30,703 nucleotides of DNA from a virus: positions 1 to 30,703 of the IMG/VR virus record IMGVR_UViG_3300035158_000367. One strand, written 5' to 3'. Positions 114-29,116 of the stretch are shown here, piece after piece (within the stretch, counting starts at the first letter, position 1; each line of letters starts with the position of its first letter). The position numbers were made by a program, and so were the translations under genes. Under the pieces are notes generated by a model. It had not been told where the DNA came from. It was given only the letters and a program-made list of their open reading frames with translations, and ran no database searches.

Positions 114-248
114 TGGATTTCAATATCGTCTTGGCTCGCAAGGGACCACTGGATTTCATCTTAACTTTGGCTCGCACTCATATCTTGGATTTCAGGAAAA
201 ACCTGGCTCGCAAAGCCAGAATGGATTTCAGGCCCTCTGTGGCTTCAA
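114..248 (-). repeat. TIGR-type array 1
   Basis: On the + strand TGGATTTCA occurs at 114, 150, 186 and 222, alternating with TGGCTCGCA at 132, 168 and 204; a decayed copy TGGCTTCAA is at 240. Every spacer is exactly 9 nt and all differ: atatcgtct, agggaccac, tcttaactt, ctcatatct, ggaaaaacc, aagccagaa, ggccctctg. In the leftward transcript the unit reads UGAAAUCCA-N9-UGCGAGCCA-N9 (36 nt). The array starts 7 nt after the stop codon of the 205-aa gene and is sense to that operon. The structure matches tandem interspaced guide RNA arrays. Confidence 0.9.
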
Positions 249-255
249 TGCAATT

Positions 256-873
256 TTACGCCACGTCGCTCTCCGGCGAAATGAGCTTCTTAATTTTCTC
301 TAGCTTGGTCAACTCAGTCTTCTGTTCGATAACCGTCCGTTTCAGTTTTTCATTCTGGTCTCTGAGTTCTTTGATTTCCGTGCGTTGCTCGCGGATAATC
401 TCACGCAAGCGGTCCATTTCGTCCTGAGATAGTGCAGGGGCCTGAATTCTAACTGGTTTGGGTTTGCGGTGCTTCTCTATGATCTCCTCCACCTTTTGTC
501 GCCATTGCACGCCAGACGTTTTGAGCTTGTCAATTTCCTTGATCGCCTTCTCGGGCTTATCGCATACGTCCCAAATCTTGGCAACCAAACCTACGCCATG
601 CTCTTCCACCTTCTTCCTCTGGCGCAATATGGCGTTGCGATATTTGATGTAGGTATGTGGCCTCATGCCGTAGAAGTCCAAAAGGTAATGGTCCCATTGG
701 CTGTTTTTATAGCCTTCGTTTTCTTTGAAGCGCCTGGTCCGGTCAAGATAATAGAGTAATTCCACCATGCGGATCATGGTCGCACGGTTCCTGAGTTGGT
801 TGTTCTTGATCTCCTGTTCGATGTCTACAATACTTCTGCCGTCGTTTTCTTTTTTTAATTTGTCTAGTTTCAT
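256..873 (-). CDS. Coiled-coil protein encoded between two TIGR arrays
   Basis: A 205-aa protein I do not recognise by family. The N-terminal two thirds are mainly helical and charged, with a conserved-looking segment around residues 50-90 rich in aromatics (YKNSQWDHYLLDFYG) and a basic stretch after it; residues 150-198 form a strong Leu/Ile-spaced coiled coil, so it probably oligomerises. The start ATG at 873 has AAAGGA about 7 nt upstream. It lies directly between arrays 1 and 2, downstream of the Nop-like gene in the same leftward operon. An accessory role in the guide-RNA system (array or effector binding) is inference from position only; it could equally be an unrelated early phage protein. 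Confidence 0.75.
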   Translation of the reverse strand: MKLDKLKKENDGRSIVDIEQEIKNNQLRNRATMIRMVELLYYLDRTRRFKENEGYKNSQWDHYLLDFYGMRPHTYIKYRNAILRQRKKVEEHGVGLVAKIWDVCDKPEKAIKEIDKLKTSGVQWRQKVEEIIEKHRKPKPVRIQAPALSQDEMDRLREIIREQRTEIKELRDQNEKLKRTVIEQKTELTKLEKIKKLISPESDVA

Positions 874-900: not shown

Positions 901-1163
901 TTAGGCGCATAATGGGGGTGGATTTCAATGGCCCTTATGGCTCGCAGTCATCTGTTGGATTTCAGCCATTCTTTGGCTCGCATTATACAAATGGATTTCA
1001 CGAGACGTGTGGCTCGCAGGTTTCGCCTGGATTTCACCCCATTCTTTGGCTCGCAATCCGTCCTTGGGTTTCAGGCCTTAAATGGCTCGCACTATCCCTT
1101 TGGATTTCAGCCCTCATCTGGCTCGCATCACTTCGCTGGATTTTAATTAACCGCTGGCTCCCA
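901..1163 (-). repeat. TIGR-type array 2 (largest; overlaps tas 3' end)
   Basis: TGGATTTCA (+ strand) at 919, 956, 992, 1028, 1065 (TGGGTTTCA), 1101 and 1137 (TGGATTTTA) alternates with TGGCTCGCA at 938, 974, 1010, 1047, 1083, 1119 and 1155 (TGGCTCCCA); a decayed copy TTAGGCGCA sits at 901. Spacers are 9 nt except two of 10 nt (928-937 and 1037-1046). All differ, though gccattctt (965) and ccccattctt (1037) share eight bases. It fills the gap between tas and the coiled-coil gene. The first two repeats in the transcribed direction lie in the last codons and the stop codon of tas. Confidence 0.93.
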
Positions 1164-1937
1164 AAAATACGGTTTTATCACATCATGCCCCAGGAGCTTC
1201 CCAGCATAGGGTTCTGTAACTTCTAGCTCCTCCAACTCCCTGGCCACCGCCCAGAAATGGGCCAAAAATAATTTTGCTGTCTCATGCCGGGCCATATTAC
1301 GGCGATGCATCGGCGTCGCATTAGGATGAGTTCTCAGCCTTTTCGCCTTGGCCTGATTATAGAAAAGCTTATAGGGATGAGCGTTGTTCTTCTTTTCAAA
1401 TTGCTCGCCTATGTGGTAAGCGATAGCCCGGCCCCTTCTGCCACCCCTGGATTCACCTTTATGCGCCCTGGCCTTCTTGCCATCTTCTACATGCATACCC
1501 ATGTAATGCCACCAGGCTGATATTTTAGGGAAATTCTTGCGCTCTATTCTGGCAAGTAGAATACCCTCACCCTTCGCTTTCTGACTGCAAGCCGGGCAAG
1601 TGAAGTCATCGTCCAGATCGACGCCGCATTTCTTACAGATAGGGATGAACCGAAAATAATATTCTTTGATAAGCGCTGCGGCTATCCAGGGCCCCACGCC
1701 GAACTTTTTATTGAGCCATTTTTCCCAGATTGGGAAAACCCTAAGTAGCCCTTCCATTTCCCGTGAAGTCGTTCCCTTAAGGCTCTCTAGTGCTTTGGCA
1801 ATGTCGTCATACTTTGCTGGACGTTCAGGCTTAAGATGGGCCAAGCGGTTCTTGGTTGAGGTGAGCATCTTGTTAAGGCTGTCATAGGTTTTCATCAAAA
1901 AATTCAAATACTCGACAGTTGTGTCGTCTATTTGCAT
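1143..1937 (-). CDS. tas: TIGR-associated Nop/IS110-like protein (TasA-type, nuclease-free)
   Basis: A 264-aa protein. Residues 79-93 (FGVGPWIAAALIKEY) match the helix-hairpin segment of IS110 transposase C-terminal domains and Nop-like folds. Residues 136-232 follow the order of that family: a hydrophobic 'KISAWWHYMGMH' strand, a Gly/Arg/Lys-rich segment 155-171, then helices with HRRNMARHETAK. Between them is an inserted zinc ribbon (C101, C104, C114, C117). The DEDD/RuvC half of an IS110 transposase is absent, and no HNH or RuvC domain is fused, so it would bind guide RNA and DNA without cutting. AAGGAG at 1944-1949 fixes the ATG at 1937. Arrays lie on both sides; the last codons (W259-E260-P261) are a degenerate array repeat. 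Family from known TIGR-Tas biology; assignment rests on motif reading, not a search. Confidence 0.8.
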   Translation of the reverse strand: MQIDDTTVEYLNFLMKTYDSLNKMLTSTKNRLAHLKPERPAKYDDIAKALESLKGTTSREMEGLLRVFPIWEKWLNKKFGVGPWIAAALIKEYYFRFIPICKKCGVDLDDDFTCPACSQKAKGEGILLARIERKNFPKISAWWHYMGMHVEDGKKARAHKGESRGGRRGRAIAYHIGEQFEKKNNAHPYKLFYNQAKAKRLRTHPNATPMHRRNMARHETAKLFLAHFWAVARELEELEVTEPYAGKLLGHDVIKPYFWEPAVN

Positions 1938-1963
1938 ATCTTACTCCTTCCGCATAAAGGTTT

Positions 1964-2115
1964 TGGGGTTCATTCTTCGTTTGGCTCGCAATAACCATTT
2001 GGATTTCAAACCTCTTTTGGCTCGCATTAGAATAATGGGTTTCAACGTGGCTCTGGCTCGCATTAACGGTATGGGTTTCAACCATTGCCTGGCTCGCACA
2101 GCAGGCCTGAGTTCA
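1964..2115 (-). repeat. TIGR-type array 3 (upstream of tas)
   Basis: TGGCTCGCA (+ strand) at 1982, 2018, 2054 and 2090 alternates with TGGATTTCA or its variant at 1964 (TGGGGTTCA), 2000, 2036 (TGGGTTTCA), 2072 (TGGGTTTCA) and a decayed end copy near 2108 (TGAGTTCA). Spacers are all 9 nt: ttcttcgtt, ataaccatt, aacctcttt, ttagaataa, acgtggctc, ttaacggta, accattgcc, cagcaggcc. The array starts 17 nt after the VRR-NUC stop and ends just before the tas ribosome site, so it forms the tas 5' leader. Two of the four full TGGATTTCA-type copies carry the same A-to-G change, suggesting local duplication. Confidence 0.9.
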
Positions 2116-2132
2116 TCTGTCTTTCGGTTCCA

Positions 2133-2453
2133 TCACACCAACACCTTCAGGTTAAGGGTTTCAATTACGGTCTCTATATCATCCGCTATAAAAGCGGTTA
2201 ATCCCCTCGCACGCATCTCGTCAATAAACCGTATTTGCTCGGGGTATGTTTTAGACCGTGGACCTTTGAGTTCAATAAAAGCCACCTGTCCGGGTATCTG
2301 GCTGGCCATGGTTTTCTGCGGCATATCTATGGCTATCAGGTCGGTAACACCTTTATGCGCTGAGAACTGGCCAGGGGTATGGGTACGGATCACATACCAC
2401 CCGCAGGCTTGCAGTAAGTCAACCACAGCTTTCGTCAGTTGTTTTTCATTCAT
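2133..2453 (-). CDS. VRR-NUC domain nuclease
   Basis: A 106-aa stand-alone VRR-NUC (PD-(D/E)XK superfamily) endonuclease. Visible motifs are GVTDLIAI (catalytic D38), then VAFIELKG (E61, K63) and the following Gln (Q73), in the order and spacing of the family; length is normal for single-domain phage versions. Such proteins act on DNA structures in phage replication or recombination. No strong ribosome site precedes the ATG at 2453; a GC-rich hairpin (2466-2495) lies directly upstream. It is the gene just before array 3 and tas in the operon, so it could supply nuclease activity to a nuclease-free Tas protein, but that is inference. Its first 17 codons are duplicated at 4582-4632. Confidence 0.85.
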   Translation of the reverse strand: MNEKQLTKAVVDLLQACGWYVIRTHTPGQFSAHKGVTDLIAIDMPQKTMASQIPGQVAFIELKGPRSKTYPEQIRFIDEMRARGLTAFIADDIETVIETLNLKVLV

Positions 2454-6989: not shown

Positions 6990-7445
6990 ATGAAAATCCT
7001 ACACCGCTACACAAGAGAATGCCTATTTGAGGCTGGGGCCAAAACCGTAAAAGAGTTGATGGAAAAGGCTGTTGACAAAAAAGCCGACCTGGGCGAAGCC
7101 GACCTGGGCGGAGCCGACCTGGGCGGAGCCGACCTGCGCAGAGCCTACCTGACATGGGCCTACCTGACAGAGGCCAACCTGACAGAGGCCAACCTGACAG
7201 AGGCCAACCTGACAGAGGCCAACCTGACAGGGGCCGACCTGAGAGGGGCCGACCTGAGAGGGGCCGACCTGACAGGGGCCGACCACGAACTCAGACTCAT
7301 CAAATCATGGCACGCCAAATCCCCCAACATAAAAGATCTAATGAAATCCAAGGCCAGGGTGCGAGCCAAAGGAGGAATGAAATCCAAGAATTGCCTGCGA
7401 GCCAGAAAAAGCCTGAAATCCATAATTCGGCTGCGAGCCAAGTGA
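6990..7445 (+). CDS. Pentapeptide-repeat protein whose C-terminus is read from a TIGR array
   Basis: 151 aa, ATG 6990 after GGAGG. Residues 31-99 contain about 14 pentapeptide repeats of the A(D/N)LxG type ([20 protein letters not shown]), which fold as a right-handed quadrilateral beta-helix; such proteins can mimic DNA and protect gyrase, but the role here is unknown. From residue 118 on ([21 protein letters not shown]) the codons are array 4 repeats read in frame: TGAAATCCA gives M-K-S and TGCGAGCCA gives V/L-R-A. The stop lies in an array spacer (7443-7445). The basic tail is thus a by-product of, or selected with, the guide array. Confidence 0.75.
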
Positions 7446-7476
7446 TGTTTGAAATCCAGATTGGGAATGCGAGCCA
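7342..7476 (+). repeat. TIGR-type array 4 (+ strand)
   Basis: TGAAATCCA at 7342, 7378, 7414, 7450 alternates with TGCGAGCCA at 7360, 7396, 7432, 7468, all eight copies perfect and all seven spacers 9 nt: aggccaggg, aaggaggaa, agaattgcc, gaaaaagcc, taattcggc, agtgatgtt, gattgggaa. Orientation is opposite to arrays 1-3 on the DNA but identical relative to transcription, because this operon runs rightward. It overlaps the end of the pentapeptide gene and is followed 12 nt later by a strong terminator. Confidence 0.93.
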
Positions 7477-11907: not shown

Positions 11908-12594
11908 ATGTTAGGTTGGCACTTTTTGGGGGAGGACAAAAGGATGCAATTTAGTCCAAGGACTGTTGTCGAAACAGGCCAAACCTATACATGCGAGGGG
12001 AAGTTAATCCCCTGTAAAAATGGACTACATGCAAGTCGGAGGATTATAGATGCCTTAAAATACGCACCCGGTCCCATTATATGCCGGGTAGAATTATCCG
12101 GTGAGATCATCTATGACACCGACAAGGCGGTTGCTAGACATCGCAAGGTAATATGGATGCTTGATGCGACTAATGTGCTACATGAGTTTGCCTGTAGATG
12201 CGCTGAAGATGCACTTGCCTTAGTAGGTAACCCCGACCCAAGCAGTATTGCGGCAATTCAGGCAAAAAGAAATTGGATGAAGGGTAAAATTACGGATAAA
12301 GGATTGGTTGCCGCGAGGGCTACCGCGAGGGATGCTGCGAGGGATGCTGCGAGGGATGTTGCGAGGGCTGCCGCGTGGGATGCTGCGTGGATTGCTGCGA
12401 AGGATGCTGCGTGGGCTGCCGCGAAGGGTGCTGCGAGGGATGCTGAGTGGGCTGCGAGGGCTGCTGCGAGGGAGGCTGAGTGGGATGCTGCGTGGAGTGC
12501 TGCGAGGGATGCTGAGTGGGCTGCGAGGGCTGCTGCGAGGGCTAAATTTAATCGTAGGCTTACTTCGATGGTGGTTGCTGGTCAAAGCGGGTAA
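11908..12594 (+). CDS. DUF7666-like protein with alanine-rich repeat tail
   Basis: 228 aa, ATG 11908 after AAGGAAAA. Residues 1-120 match the phage DUF7666 pattern (WHFL, then CKNGLHAS, 'ALKYAPGPIICRVEL', DKAVARHR). Residues 135-212 are repeats of AARDAAWDAA type, encoded by a GC-rich tandem repeat of 12-15 bp (about 12305-12540), expected to form a long helix. Function unknown. Copy number of the repeat is likely variable. Confidence 0.65.
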   Translation: MLGWHFLGEDKRMQFSPRTVVETGQTYTCEGKLIPCKNGLHASRRIIDALKYAPGPIICRVELSGEIIYDTDKAVARHRKVIWMLDATNVLHEFACRCAEDALALVGNPDPSSIAAIQAKRNWMKGKITDKGLVAARATARDAARDAARDVARAAAWDAAWIAAKDAAWAAAKGAARDAEWAARAAAREAEWDAAWSAARDAEWAARAAARAKFNRRLTSMVVAGQSG

Positions 12595-23929: not shown

Positions 23930-26875
23930 TTACGACCCGGAGCCGTCCCCCAAAGTCTTCGCTAAAAATTCCAAAAAATGTTCTTTAGTAGCGAACCTGC
24001 CTACTCTCATTGGTGGTACTTCGCCCTGCAGGCCCACACCCATAGTCCAGCGTATGTCGAAACCACGCCCTAGCACGCGAAGCCCCGCACTGTAATACTG
24101 CAGCGCCTCCCAGGCCATGTGGCCGCCCATGGCGAGAAACGAATTGTGGAATATCTGTACCACGTCTTCAGCGAACACCCGCGCCCGTTCGGTGATCACT
24201 CCGCCCGTGCTCTCGAGTTCCCATTGGGCCAGGTGGATCAGGTCGCGCATGTAGAGGTATTTTCCGAGTATGCGCTCCGGGTGCGCCTCGCGGTCCCTGT
24301 GCAGAAGCGGCAAATTGCGCCAGAACTTCTTGCGCCGCTTGGCCTCGGTGTAGTAGCCCGTGTGCGCTATGTCCACGTCCATGAGTTCGGCGTTCGGGCC
24401 GCAGCCCTGGTTCACTGCGTATTCGGGATGCTCGTGGATGTAGCCCCAGAAGCGAATGTCTTTCTTGTTCCTGAACACGCGACTAGGCTTGTCGATCTTG
24501 TAGCTTTGCGGCGGCTGGCAGGTGAAATGGTGCTGCTTGATCCGGTAGGAGTCCATCGGCCCGAAATGGCGCAGGTATTTCACCAAGTGGTCGCCGTGCT
24601 GCAGCTCCTCGTCCGCGTCGATCCACAGTATCCACTCGCCTTGGGCGTGCCTGATGGACTCGTTCCGCGAAGTCTCGAAGCCTTTCTCCAGCGGGTTCGG
24701 TCCCTTGCGGACGATGGCCCCGAACTCCTTGGCTATCTGCATAGTCCTGTCCGTGCACCCGGTATCCAGCAGCAGGATCTCGTCCGCCACTTCATGGATG
24801 CTATTCAGGCAGCGCCTTATGTTTGCCTCTTCGTTCGCCGCTATCATGCAGACCGAAAGCCTGTTGCGCGGGACCTGCACCGTCAGCTTGCGCCGCTCGT
24901 TCAGCCTGCCGTATTCGCCGCCCTTGCCGAACGAGTACAGATACCAGCCGCAAAGCTCCTTGGTGGTCTCTGTATGCTGCCAGTAAAGCACCGTGGCCTG
25001 GAAGTCGTCCTTCTGGCCGAAATATTCCTCGATGTCCATCTTTTCTATATGCCGCACGTGGAACTCGTGGTGGTGGCCGCTGTCCTTGCTGACTGCCCGG
25101 CGCAATGGGCCGAAAGGCGTGGTAATCAGGAAATGGCCGTCGTCCTTGAGGTACGGCTCGAACTGTTTCACGAAGTCTTGGGGTTCGATGTAGGCCAGGT
25201 GCTCGAGGATCTCGGCTATGTAGATGACGTCGTATTTGTCCTTAGCCCATAGATTTTTGTTGTCAGCATCGCAAAAAAGAACACTTCCACCATTCTCGGT
25301 ACCATTCCATCTAGCTGCCATTAACTTGATTGCCTGCTTCACATATTCTGGTGCCACATCAAATCCGACCACGTTGTACCCTAGATTCGCCAGCCCCACG
25401 CTGAAATAACCACAACCGCAGCCGACATCAAGAATCCTTGCCCCCTTCGGTATTCCCATCCGTTCGAACCATCCCTGCGTCTCGCGCCACCGGGGCTCTT
25501 GGCTGAACACCTGGTCGTAGTGCAGCGCCACGTGATCCTCGACTCTATCCTTCCATTCAAATTTGGCAAAGTTAGCATACTTGGCTTTATGTTCTTCCTC
25601 GTCGAAGCACCAGCCATATTCGTCCTCTATCTGTTTGGCTACTGGCAGTTTATGTTTATCAGCCACTTGCTTCGCGTGGATCATGTCTTCGTGATAGAAG
25701 AAATGGTGCGCTAGGAGCTTGGGCTCCTTGCTGGCTTCCCTGAACATCGAATACCATTCCTGCTCCCACTGCAGAGCAACGTCAGTCCAACTGAATCTGG
25801 GCGCGCGGTCGTAGCATGCCTGCCTCATCTTGGCCAGGTCCGCATGGCCTTCATTGAGCAGATGGAAAACCTTCTCGGCGAAGAGCTTGCGGTAATTGGG
25901 CTGCTCGGGTTCGGCTTCGAGTAGCACGCTGGTCTCCTTGCCCAGGGTCTCGGGCAACGCCCCCAGGGCCGTGGTCACGAAAGGCGTGCCGGCGGCCATG
26001 CACTCCATGGCGCTGATGCAGCTGATCTCCCGGAACATCGTGCCTGGATGTGGCGTGGGATAGGCGTACAGTTCGGCCTCTGCATAGTGCTGATAGAGTT
26101 CGCGTTTCTGCAGAAAGCCGAGCTTGGTCACGTTGGGCAGTGCCTCGGCCCGTTCGTCGAAATACTGATACATGCTGGCCAGATGCGCCACGGGATTGTC
26201 GTAGCCGCAGATGTAAAGGTGGATCTCCGGGTCGAGCTCGTAGAGCATGTCCATGATGCCGCCGGGATCTAACAGGTTGCCAAGGCCGCGTTCGGGTCGG
26301 GCCGAGTACATGATCTTTTTGGAAACTTTTGACACAGAGCCGGGCTCCGGGAACCAGCCAAGGTCTATGCCGTTTCTGGTCCGGCAATAAACGTGCTCCG
26401 GGATGAACGGGTACGTCTGCTGGTATTGCTCTTTCATGTAATCGCTGAGTACGAAGATCCGGTCCATGTTCCACAGCGCCGCCGCGTGCGCCTGCCTCGC
26501 CTGCGGTGTGGCCAGGTCGTGGTTCCACAGGAAATGCAGTTTGCAAGCGCTGTTTATGCTAGTAAAGAACTCGGGATGACGCTGCACTATGAGCACGTCC
26601 ATGGGCATCTTGCTCACGGCTTCTTGGGCGTATTGTACAGGCGAATACCTCACCTCGTCGAACACGCCGCCCTCGGGCTGCTCCTCCGGCAGGCTGGACC
26701 ATACCGTCACGTGATGACCCCGCGCGGCCAGTTCCCTAGCCATGCACACGGTGGCGGTCTCTGATCCGCCGAGGCTTTTCTCCTTTATGGTATCACCGTC
26801 GAACGGCAGCCCCGGCACCACGATTGAGATGGTCAGCAGGAATTCGGGTTTGTCTTTTGCGGCCCTTTCGGTCAT
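23930..26875 (-). CDS. Trifunctional GT4 - SAM methyltransferase - GT2 protein
   Basis: 981 aa; ATG 26875 is chosen because AGGGGAGG lies at 26880-26887; an ATG at 26920 has none. Domain 1 (about 10-385): GT4/GT-B glycosyltransferase (KSLGGSETATVCMARELAARG, later 'ECMAAGTPFVTTALGALPE'). Domain 2 (about 440-640): class I SAM methyltransferase (DVGCGCGYF 483-491, acidic D506, EHL 558). Domain 3 (about 672-780): GT2 (SVCMIAANEE, WIDADEEL with DxD). The C-terminal 180 residues are helical. It should build or modify a glycan, perhaps on capsid or host surface. The gene is placed within structural genes, unusual for such an enzyme. Confidence 0.85.
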   Translation of the reverse strand: MTERAAKDKPEFLLTISIVVPGLPFDGDTIKEKSLGGSETATVCMARELAARGHHVTVWSSLPEEQPEGGVFDEVRYSPVQYAQEAVSKMPMDVLIVQRHPEFFTSINSACKLHFLWNHDLATPQARQAHAAALWNMDRIFVLSDYMKEQYQQTYPFIPEHVYCRTRNGIDLGWFPEPGSVSKVSKKIMYSARPERGLGNLLDPGGIMDMLYELDPEIHLYICGYDNPVAHLASMYQYFDERAEALPNVTKLGFLQKRELYQHYAEAELYAYPTPHPGTMFREISCISAMECMAAGTPFVTTALGALPETLGKETSVLLEAEPEQPNYRKLFAEKVFHLLNEGHADLAKMRQACYDRAPRFSWTDVALQWEQEWYSMFREASKEPKLLAHHFFYHEDMIHAKQVADKHKLPVAKQIEDEYGWCFDEEEHKAKYANFAKFEWKDRVEDHVALHYDQVFSQEPRWRETQGWFERMGIPKGARILDVGCGCGYFSVGLANLGYNVVGFDVAPEYVKQAIKLMAARWNGTENGGSVLFCDADNKNLWAKDKYDVIYIAEILEHLAYIEPQDFVKQFEPYLKDDGHFLITTPFGPLRRAVSKDSGHHHEFHVRHIEKMDIEEYFGQKDDFQATVLYWQHTETTKELCGWYLYSFGKGGEYGRLNERRKLTVQVPRNRLSVCMIAANEEANIRRCLNSIHEVADEILLLDTGCTDRTMQIAKEFGAIVRKGPNPLEKGFETSRNESIRHAQGEWILWIDADEELQHGDHLVKYLRHFGPMDSYRIKQHHFTCQPPQSYKIDKPSRVFRNKKDIRFWGYIHEHPEYAVNQGCGPNAELMDVDIAHTGYYTEAKRRKKFWRNLPLLHRDREAHPERILGKYLYMRDLIHLAQWELESTGGVITERARVFAEDVVQIFHNSFLAMGGHMAWEALQYYSAGLRVLGRGFDIRWTMGVGLQGEVPPMRVGRFATKEHFLEFLAKTLGDGSGS

Positions 26876-26924
26876 GAAATCCTCCCCTGGTTTAGCCAAA
26901 GAAAAAGGGCGGTTAGACATGGTG

Positions 26925-27007: not shown

Positions 27008-27664
27008 TTAAACAGTCTCCTGTGAAGAAAACTGTATTTTCCCTTTCCATTTATCAGCCAGATAATCTCTGTCTGGCTTCTGTTTCTCTTCCAGTCCCTC
27101 TTCTTGTTTATCCGGGCTGGTCACCCTGCCCGTCGGCGCCCCGTGCAAAAGCCACACGTGCCCGTTGCAGTAGCACGACCAGCCATTCTCCCAAGCCTGC
27201 CGGCTCAGGTCTATGTCAACGAAGTAAGTCAGATTCTCATCCGCCCTTAAGCCTGCCTTGCGCCTTAGGACATTGCAGAAGCCGAATGTGCTGTGAACAG
27301 GACTTATAGAATCAAGCCACGGTCTGAAGCCGTTGTCGGGAATCGTGCCGTCCTTGGTCTCTATGGGCATCACTATGGCGGCGTCCGGGCGAAGGTACAT
27401 AGTCTCGACCAAGGATCGCAGCCAGAACGGCCTCAAGGCGGCGGTGTCGTCCTCAAGAACACAGATGAAATCCGCGTTCGCCCGTTCCATCAACCTGTTC
27501 CAGTTCTCGGCGTGGCTCACAGGGTCCAGCTGCAGGATGAGATTGTACTTAACTCCAGCCTCGACCCTTATGAGGCTTTGCAGGCAACGCTCCAGCAATT
27601 CGTTCCCTTGCGGTTTGTGGCAGAGTATTCCGACTTCGACACTGAACATCTGGCCCTGGTGCAT
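27008..27664 (-). CDS. GT2-like glycosyltransferase
   Basis: 218 aa. Pattern of GT-A/GT2: VEVGILCHKPQGNELLERCL, then a DxD-like acidic cluster in 'FICVLEDDTAAL' (around residues 66-77), 'PDAAIVMPIETK' and a C-terminal FVDIDLSRQAW. Shorter than classic GT2 but with the nucleotide-sugar core. Adjacent to the trifunctional enzyme and GT75-like gene, so probably the same glycan pathway. Start could be residue 1 or Met at residue 6. Confidence 0.7.
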   Translation of the reverse strand: MHQGQMFSVEVGILCHKPQGNELLERCLQSLIRVEAGVKYNLILQLDPVSHAENWNRLMERANADFICVLEDDTAALRPFWLRSLVETMYLRPDAAIVMPIETKDGTIPDNGFRPWLDSISPVHSTFGFCNVLRRKAGLRADENLTYFVDIDLSRQAWENGWSCYCNGHVWLLHGAPTGRVTSPDKQEEGLEEKQKPDRDYLADKWKGKIQFSSQETV

Positions 27665-27666
27665 GG

Positions 27667-28077
27667 CTACATTACCTCGTAGAGCACGTCTATGACGCCC
27701 TGGGTGCTGTTGCCCGCATTGGTTATGCTCGGCATGAGGCTCGTTGCGTGAATGTAGGCCGCCTCGGCGCTTTGCACCAGCGGCAATGCGGTCATGCTGC
27801 TTATGAGATTAGCACCCAAGCCAAACAGCCAATCATAGCCATACTTGTCCACGAGCGTCACATCGTAGCCGCTAGACGGCAAGGAACCGGCGCTCGAGGC
27901 GTCAACGATGTCCTTGAACTCGACGCGCCTGAGCCTGCCGGTTATGGCCTGAGCACCGCCCACGGCTGAGACGCTGCCATCAGTGTGTGCCGTCCAGCTC
28001 CACCGCACGCGCTGCAACTGGCCGCGTTTCAACTTTTTGTTGTCAGTTTCTTGCGTTACGTCACAATCTGCCGCCAT
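27667..28077 (-). CDS. Phage structural-like protein of unknown function
   Basis: 136 aa, ATG 28077 with GAGGAG. Beta-rich: QLQRVRWSWTAHTDGSVSAV, then 'DVTLVDKYGYDWL'. The pattern of small charged strands and a C-terminal LYEVM resembles virion decoration or minor head proteins, but no family is identified. It sits between two glycosyltransferase genes. Confidence 0.5.
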   Translation of the reverse strand: MAADCDVTQETDNKKLKRGQLQRVRWSWTAHTDGSVSAVGGAQAITGRLRRVEFKDIVDASSAGSLPSSGYDVTLVDKYGYDWLFGLGANLISSMTALPLVQSAEAAYIHATSLMPSITNAGNSTQGVIDVLYEVM

Positions 28078-28081
28078 AATC

Positions 28082-29116
28082 TTACTCCTCGAAAAGTGTT
28101 AGCCATTCTAAGATGGCTTTGCCGTATTGTCCCCAATATTCGCGGCCTCCGTTTTGGCCCCAATCGTCGATCATATTCATAGCAAGCTCTTTTAATAGTT
28201 CTGTGGGAGTCATTGAAGTTGGTTTTAAACCAGTTAAATTCATAATCCACTCATACAACTCCACGTTCATCTTATAGCCCGGCGCTTCTTTGACTATGTT
28301 GACAAACGGGTCGGAAGCTCGCACATGCCGCACGTAAGGACTACCGGACCATACCGCGTAGCCGCAATGATCGAGTACTTTCTTGGCCAGGAATCCGCAC
28401 CAGATGTCATCGAAACGGTCCACGCCCCAGGCTGGCCCCTGGAGGCCAAAGTACATCAGCGGGGCTATCTCGCGTCGGAACGCTATGTTCATGCCGGACA
28501 TGGGGAAAAGAGCGCCAATAGGAATTGTCTGATAGGGAGTCATATAATTACCTATACGTAAACCAAGCGAAGTTAAATCCGTAATCGCATCCGTATCAGG
28601 ATTTTTGAACCATAGTCCATGTGAAATTGCGACTGGATTTCCTGGTAAATAAGGCATTCCACGGGGTCTTGGCGCATAAAGTGTGTCCATCACATGATTG
28701 TATAAAGTTTTCCTGAGATTCGCTTTATGACCCTGCATCCATTCATAAGGTCTATCTTCCCCAGGACTTTCAATCGGCAAACAATCATCGTCCAGTACCA
28801 TTATCGGGTCCCTGTCGTGTTTCCATGCCTTGTAGATGGCGAACGACTTGCACGCGCTGGTCTTTGACGGTATTATCCAGCGCTTGTCCTTCAATTCCAG
28901 CGCCACGTCATGGTGGTTATAGACGTTGAGATCGGTCAACCCGGCATCAATGCAGATGGACCATATTCGTTTCCTTTTGTCCTCGTCCTTGGTGTCGTCG
29001 TCGTGCATGACGAAGACAGATACCTTTTCGCGGTTGAACTCGTCGGCCCATGCCTCGGCCCATTGATGCAAATGGTCCGGCCTTATGGTTGCTATGCAAA
29101 CAGCTGGTTTATTCAT
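28082..29116 (-). CDS. GT75-like (reversibly glycosylated polypeptide) protein
   Basis: 344 aa, ATG 29116 with AAGGAG. Motifs resemble the RGP/UDP-arabinopyranose mutase family (GT75): IIPSKTSACKSFA (82-94), the acidic cluster PIMVLDDDCLP (104-114, DDD 109-111), 'FPMSGMNIAFRRE', 'GVDRFDDIWCGFLAKKVLDH' and HVRASDPFVNIVKEA. These proteins are best known from plants, where they interconvert UDP-arabinose forms or are self-glycosylated. In phage, a glycan role on the virion is plausible. Assignment from motif order only. Confidence 0.65.
   Translation of the reverse strand: MNKPAVCIATIRPDHLHQWAEAWADEFNREKVSVFVMHDDDTKDEDKRKRIWSICIDAGLTDLNVYNHHDVALELKDKRWIIPSKTSACKSFAIYKAWKHDRDPIMVLDDDCLPIESPGEDRPYEWMQGHKANLRKTLYNHVMDTLYAPRPRGMPYLPGNPVAISHGLWFKNPDTDAITDLTSLGLRIGNYMTPYQTIPIGALFPMSGMNIAFRREIAPLMYFGLQGPAWGVDRFDDIWCGFLAKKVLDHCGYAVWSGSPYVRHVRASDPFVNIVKEAPGYKMNVELYEWIMNLTGLKPTSMTPTELLKELAMNMIDDWGQNGGREYWGQYGKAILEWLTLFEE

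What the first reader, a model, noticed from the sequence alone, without database searches (positions are those of the whole stretch)
1143..1937. Tas-like protein with an inserted zinc ribbon and no nuclease
Between the helix-hairpin (79-93) and the second half of the Nop/IS110 core (136-232) lies a CKKC...CPAC ribbon. I know of no such insert in IS110 transposases. No RuvC or HNH is present, so the protein should bind, not cut. The insert could contact guide RNA, DNA or a partner nuclease such as the VRR-NUC protein encoded upstream.
Basis: partly seen in the sequence, partly recalled or inferred. Interest (0 to 1): 0.8.

Follow-up and report, generated by a model that had tools for sequence, protein, structure and literature searches.

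The report
Zinc-ribbon TasA in a TIGR-Tas module
A phage carries an RNA-guided DNA-binding protein (TasA) that lacks a nuclease but has a zinc-binding finger built into its core, and this finger marks a whole phage lineage of such proteins that almost always travels with a second, probably DNA-binding, protein.

Summary
The 264-aa ORF (1143-1937, minus) is a nuclease-less Nop-fold protein: TasR Z 22, TasH Z 20.8, IS110 recombinases Z 15. It lies among arrays that obey the TIGR rules (36-nt unit, 9-nt repeats TGCGAGCCA/TGAAATCCA, 9-nt spacers). A ~38-aa CxxC...CxxC ribbon sits between the helix-hairpin-helix and the rest of the Nop core. The ribbon is not unique to this phage: the same four cysteines occur in 34 non-redundant loci (31-49% identity), and in the tree (19 ribbon rows, insert columns left out) they form one clade (support 100/99). 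The other 47 Tas proteins compared, and the solved TasR and TasH, lack it. The primary TIGR-Tas paper's main text mentions no zinc or ribbon. The suggested VRR-NUC partner is not supported (3 of 25 ribbon contigs). A better partner is the 205-aa ORF at 256-873: 30 of 34 ribbon loci have a homologue, 0 of 47 other Tas loci do. Its helical fold weakly resembles the ParB DNA-binding domain, so it may be the published 'TasParB'. Most likely this is an RNA-guided binder, not a cutter, with the ribbon as a docking or dimer surface (inferred). No target was found. Verdict: new variant of a known kind.

The parts
1143..1937 (-). tasA-like gene, 264 aa: Nop/IS110-type core with a zinc-ribbon insert and no nuclease domain
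   Evidence: translation; AF2 model pLDDT 92; VIA-align Z 22 to TasR 9mty, 20.8 to TasH 9w04; phmmer 6.5e-16 to TasR
1656..1700 (-). helix-hairpin-helix, residues 80-94
   Evidence: alignment and model
1536..1655 (-). insert, residues 95-134; zinc knuckles C101/C104 and C114/C117 at 1587-1637
   Evidence: four Cys invariant in the ribbon clade, insert absent in 47 other Tas proteins
1946..2116 (-). TIGR array 3, just upstream of tas: 3 full units (edge TGCGAGCCA, loop TGAAAT/CCCA, 9-nt spacers); its degenerate last edge repeat TGCGGAAGG overlaps the tas ribosome-binding region
   Evidence: sequence
920..1163 (-). TIGR array 2, between tas and the partner gene: about 6 units; its first edge repeat is the last codons of tas
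256..873 (-). 205-aa partner gene: helical DNA-binding-like domain plus C-terminal coiled coil; possibly TasParB
   Evidence: 30 of 34 ribbon loci, 0 of 47 other Tas loci; AF2 pLDDT 93.6; top fold matches are ParB DNA-binding domains, Z 5.7-6.9, but no sequence-profile match to ParB
114..248 (-). TIGR array 1, downstream of the partner gene: 3 units
7342..7476 (+). TIGR array 4, opposite strand, 5.4 kb from tas, same repeats, 3 full units
2133..2453 (-). VRR-NUC protein: a neighbour, judged not part of the module
   Evidence: Pfam VRR_NUC; not conserved in the clade

Best explanation
This is a phage TIGR-TasA module of a distinct lineage, 'zinc-ribbon TasA'. Shown by computation: a nuclease-free Nop-fold protein carries a clade-defining zinc ribbon after its helix-hairpin-helix, sits among TIGR dual-repeat arrays, and is genetically linked to one conserved second protein that looks like a helical DNA-binding dimer. 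Inferred from TasR/TasH biochemistry: arrays on the same strand are transcribed and processed to 36-nt tigRNAs; a TasA dimer holds one tigRNA by its C/D boxes and opens an 18-bp target, spacer A pairing with one strand and spacer B with the other, without cutting. Inferred further: the ribbon is a docking or dimer surface specific to this lineage, most likely for the partner protein, so that the guide decides where a stable, bent, partner-loaded complex forms (blocking, tethering or partition rather than cleavage).
For: Fold: TasR Z 22 rmsd 2.3 over 200 residues, TasH Z 20.8, IS110 Z 15, Nop5 Z 7.7. Sequence: TasR E 6.5e-16 and TasH E 3e-7, with the insert not aligned in either. Arrays: 36-nt unit, repeats starting TG and ending CCA as in the published rule. 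Ribbon: invariant cysteines; one clade 100/99 on a tree built without the insert columns. Partner: homologue in 30 of 34 ribbon loci and in none of 47 others; whole-contig search of 49 contigs negative with positive control 6 of 6; the reverse scan found 13 partner loci, all on contigs that also carry ribbon TasA. No other gene family apart from TasA and the partner is near tas in more than 9 loci, leaving aside antisense and array-frame ORFs. Faure et al. report ParB-like genes in operons with tasA, arrays around them, and a predicted head-to-head TasA dimer unlike other Tas (PMC12045711).
Against: The ribbon is kept in L034 (deepest ribbon branch) and L024, whose contigs show no partner, so the ribbon cannot depend strictly on the partner. 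The partner's likeness to ParB is weak (Foldseek not significant; hhalign negative). No target of any spacer was found. Nothing was tested for RNA binding, zinc or complex formation.
Confidence: 0.5

Rival explanations
1. The ribbon touches nucleic acid directly (target DNA beside the opened 18 bp, or the tigRNA), e.g. as a lineage-specific wedge or clamp, independently of the partner.
For: Insert is mildly basic (mean net charge +2.6 over 31 inserts); it follows a helix-hairpin-helix, a common DNA/RNA-contact motif; it is kept in two loci without a detected partner (L024, L034). TasR has a 'wedge loop' that separates strands (PMC12045711).
Against: The same repeats with 36-nt units occur beside Tas proteins without the ribbon (L004, L005, L008), so the ribbon does not set repeat sequence or unit length. 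No coordinates of the TasR complex were at hand to place the insert.
Confidence: 0.28
2. The ribbon is a structural staple of the Nop core in one lineage, with no contact function of its own.
For: Single origin, all four cysteines invariant while the knuckle-to-knuckle loop varies in length.
Against: 47 other Tas proteins and TasR/TasH fold without it; conserved flanking residues (YYYRF, KGDG, DFPNIS) go beyond the cysteines.
Confidence: 0.18
3. The ribbon recruits the VRR-NUC nuclease encoded upstream, making a two-part nuclease.
For: VRR-NUC gene at 2133-2453 is on the same strand, about 0.2 kb upstream of tas.
Against: VRR-NUC above cut-off in only 3 of 25 ribbon contigs; in one of them about 25 kb away. 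It does not recur among neighbours. VRR-NUC genes are common in phages (own knowledge).
Confidence: 0.03
4. The protein is an IS110-type transposase or a decayed one, and the repeats are unrelated.
For: PHROG 4285 is labelled 'transposase'; Nop/IS110 core similarity.
Against: No DEDD/RuvC domain, nearest solved relatives are TasR and TasH, and TIGR arrays flank it and its relatives.
Confidence: 0.01

Closest known systems
TIGR-TasA (Faure et al. 2025, PMC12045711), including TasA operons with tasParB
   Same: Nuclease-less Nop protein; dual-repeat TIGR arrays with TG...CCA repeats and 9-nt spacers around the genes; phage setting; second gene in the operon with arrays between
   Different: A zinc-ribbon insert not mentioned in the main text; the partner here lacks a detectable ParB N-terminal domain, and the supplement (fig. 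S14, Table S1) could not be read, so identity with tasParB is unproven
TaTasR (PDB 9mty)
   Same: Same Nop fold and coiled coil, Z 22, E 6.5e-16
   Different: TasR has an N-terminal RuvC nuclease and no ribbon at this site
SpTasH of Salicola phage CGphi29 (PDB 21kl, 9w04)
   Same: Nop fold, Z 20.8; phage TIGR system
   Different: HNH N-terminal nuclease, no ribbon
IS110-family recombinases (IS621, ISCro4)
   Same: RNA-binding Nop-like C-terminal part, Z 15
   Different: DEDD/RuvC recombinase with a bridge RNA; no array; alignment to the solved members shows no counterpart of a DEDD domain here
ParB DNA-binding domain (for the partner)
   Same: Top three fold matches of the partner model, Z 5.7-6.9 over 92-96 residues
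   Different: No CTPase/ParB_N domain; no sequence-profile similarity; Z below the tool's trust level

Membership tests
TIGR-TasA | Nop-domain protein without HNH or RuvC | tested here: met
TIGR-TasA | Adjacent array of two alternating 8-12-nt repeats with ~9-nt spacers | tested here: met
TIGR-TasA | Both repeats begin UG (box D) and end CCA (box C) | tested here: met
   TGCGAGCCA and TGAAATCCA (rule)
TIGR-TasA | Solo Nop domain, no added domain | tested here: inconclusive
   No fused domain at either end, but a ~38-aa ribbon inside the Nop core
TIGR-TasA | Array processed to 36-nt tigRNAs bound by the protein; RNA-guided DNA binding | not testable with these tools
   needs pulldown and small-RNA sequencing
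TasParB (partner) | Operon with tasA, TIGR arrays around and between | tested here: met
   (gene order and strand; transcription as one unit not tested)
TasParB (partner) | ParB homology | tested here: inconclusive
   fold matches to ParB DNA-binding domain Z 5.7-6.9; hhalign negative; no Pfam hit
TasParB (partner) | Dimerises through the C-terminal region | not tested
   C-terminal helix 150-198 predicted; dimer not modelled
IS110 transposase | N-terminal DEDD/RuvC catalytic domain | tested here: not met
   no such domain in the window protein
Zinc ribbon (four-Cys) | Two CxxC-type knuckles, all four ligands conserved | tested here: met
   weak Pfam zinc-ribbon matches in several members
Zinc ribbon (four-Cys) | Binds zinc | not testable with these tools
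   needs metal analysis

The most novel reading that the evidence does not exclude
Zinc-ribbon TasA and its ParB-fold partner form an RNA-programmed partition or silencing complex: tigRNAs choose the sites at which a ParB-like DNA-binding protein is loaded, with the ribbon as the loading dock, so that short RNA arrays do the work of a fixed centromere or operator sequence.
Probability: 0.18. Interest if true: 0.88.

Novelty: new variant of a known kind. Interest (0 to 1): 0.58.

Why it matters
TasA is reported as the commonest Tas effector and the least understood, because it cannot cut. A clade-defining zinc ribbon plus a nearly obligatory partner gene gives TasA function a concrete handle: a defined lineage, a removable module (four cysteines), and a partner to test. 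The lineage also has candidate bacterial carriers (Desulfobacterota and Smithella assemblies) in which targets and function could be sought.

Tried and rejected
Single-protein scans of viral contigs and genome contigs found no relative; the profile scan did. No plasmid match. Spacer targets: A + reverse complement of B (order deduced from the published 8-nt 3' overhangs) against the own contig and 496 distinct spacer pairs against all fetched DNA: no excess over reversed order, A+B, B+A or shuffled pairs. The one 3-mismatch self match (position 27890 of the minus strand) is at chance level. VRR-NUC as partner rejected. RepO as conserved neighbour rejected. ParB homology of the partner by sequence profile: negative against six chromosomal ParB proteins, scores inside the range of column-shuffled controls. 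ParB_N genes near other Tas loci: a few within 2-4 kb, none adjacent. Ribbon as HNH remnant considered and dropped: no HNH motif, and TasH carries its HNH at the N-terminus, not at this site.

Full report
What is there. The window is a 30.7-kb virus record with phage tail, replication and recombination genes (tail and recombination genes judged from sequence only). The ORF at 1143-1937 on the minus strand gives 264 aa. It lies in a minus-strand run: VRR-NUC gene (2133-2453), TIGR array 3 (about 1946-2116), tas (1143-1937), array 2 (about 920-1163), a 205-aa ORF (256-873), array 1 (about 114-248). A fourth array lies on the plus strand at 7342-7476. Units are edge TGCGAGCCA, 9-nt spacer A, loop TGAAATCCA (or TGAAACCCA), 9-nt spacer B, with a 36-nt period. 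This fits the published TIGR rules: 8-12-nt repeats, 9-nt spacers, both repeats starting UG and ending CCA (PMC12045711). I call TGCGAGCCA the edge repeat because it can form the extra pair described for edge repeats; that assignment is inference.

Is the protein a Tas protein? Yes by several tests. phmmer against PDB gives TasR (9mty) at 6.5e-16 and TasH (21kl) at 3e-7. The AlphaFold2 model from an alignment of 38 sequences has mean pLDDT 92, pTM 0.88. VIA-align gives TasR Z 22 (rmsd 2.3, 200 residues), TasH Z 20.8, IS621/ISCro4 Z about 15, Nop5 Z 7.7. The match to TasR starts at TasR residue 110, after its RuvC domain. No nuclease family is found.

The ribbon. In the alignment with TasR, TasH, Mvi-JY20 and other Tas proteins, residues about 95-134 have no counterpart. 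A profile scan of IMG/VR gave 93 Tas relatives, of which 80 loci were kept. In a first set of 66 distinct proteins, 19 (window included) carry the ribbon; the other 47 have a stretch of mostly 30-39 aa (49 in one divergent member) where the ribbon clade has 67-96. All complete ribbon proteins keep the four cysteines at 31-49% identity to the window protein. A tree built without the insert columns puts the 19 on one side of a branch with support 100/99. A second scan and a genome scan added members, giving 34 non-redundant ribbon loci, including contigs in Desulfobacterales, Desulfobacteraceae, Smithella, a Deltaproteobacterium and Candidatus Methanoperedens assemblies. Binning errors are possible for these assemblies. 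So the ribbon is real, of single origin in this sample, and typical of a lineage, not of this phage alone.

The partner. I asked which neighbouring genes recur. Apart from tas itself, only the homologue of the 205-aa ORF does so broadly: 30 of 34 ribbon loci; the next gene family, terminase-like by its sequence, is in 9, and the other large clusters are antisense or array-frame ORFs. Of the four without it, L118 ends 93 bases after tas, L106 starts just before tas, and L024 and L034 lack it on the whole contig. None of the 47 non-ribbon Tas loci has it in the fetched flanks, nor do the 49 whole contigs searched, with a positive control of 6 of 6. A reverse scan with the partner gave 13 loci, all on contigs that also carry ribbon TasA. 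The association is clade-wide and therefore one or a few evolutionary events, so Fisher's p of 3e-18 overstates independence. Gene order is usually array-tas-array-partner(-array); the partner precedes tas in L026, L032, L110 and L125.

What the partner is. AlphaFold2 predicts a helical domain (3-134) and a long C-terminal helix (150-198), pLDDT 93.6. No Pfam or NCBIfam family fits. Foldseek finds nothing significant, but among its candidates the top three VIA-align matches are ParB DNA-binding domains (6t1f Z 6.9, 6sdk 5.8, 6s6h 5.7). A profile comparison with six chromosomal ParB proteins is negative. Faure et al. [quoted passage not shown] I think it likely (about 0.7) that the 205-aa family is tasParB, but the supplement that would show it could not be opened.

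Mechanism. Shown here: anatomy, fold, lineage, linkage. From published work on TasR/TasH/TasA: arrays are processed to 36-nt tigRNAs bound by Tas, and (TasR) the guide opens an 18-bp target with the two spacers pairing to opposite strands. Inferred: this TasA binds but does not cut; the ribbon is a lineage-specific contact surface. I favour docking of the partner or a changed dimer because the ribbon and partner mark the same lineage and because the published TasParB-linked TasA is predicted to dimerise differently. Against a strict ribbon-partner dependence, L034 and L024 keep the ribbon without a detected partner. Direct DNA or RNA contact is the main rival. The ribbon does not set repeat sequence or unit length, since the same repeats occur beside ribbon-less Tas.

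Targets. No spacer pair from the window matches its own contig above chance, and 496 pairs from 83 loci show no excess of hits over controls in the DNA on hand. The biological role therefore stays open.

Limits. Relatives came from scans seeded with conserved motifs, so rare or divergent ribbon proteins could be missed. The statement that the ribbon is undescribed rests on the main text of PMC12045711 and one review; the papers behind the 2026 TasH structures were not found in the library.

Noticed in passing
window 7342-7476 (+): A TIGR array with the same repeats on the opposite strand, 5.4 kb from tas, overlapping the 3' end of a pentapeptide-repeat-like ORF (6990-7445).
   Followed up: partly
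window 1146-1163 and 1946-1954: The last codons of tas (W-E-P) are the first edge repeat of array 2, and the degenerate last edge repeat of array 3 overlaps the tas ribosome-binding region. In L034 the tas ORF reads on into the array.
   Followed up: partly
L047 residues 184-201, L091 residues 206-225, L005 after SLWAYFG: Cysteine-rich, ribbon-like motifs at other positions in Tas proteins outside the clade, suggesting independent gains (for L005 and L047 in the loop after the second conserved motif).
   Followed up: no
L016, L017, L108: Arrays of ribbon TasA with a 37-nt period instead of 36; L016/L017 also have divergent repeats.
   Followed up: no
window 11908-12594 (+): Alanine-rich heptad-like repeat ORF (AARDAARDAAW...); its 36-nt DNA periodicity at 12341-12520 is coding and not a TIGR array.
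   Followed up: no
L007: Contig with a short array of the same repeats but no Tas gene detected on the contig.
   Followed up: partly
window 23930-26920 (-) and 27008-29116 (-): Large glycosyltransferase/methyltransferase-like fusion and further glycosyltransferase-like genes near the phage structural region; judged from sequence only.
   Followed up: no
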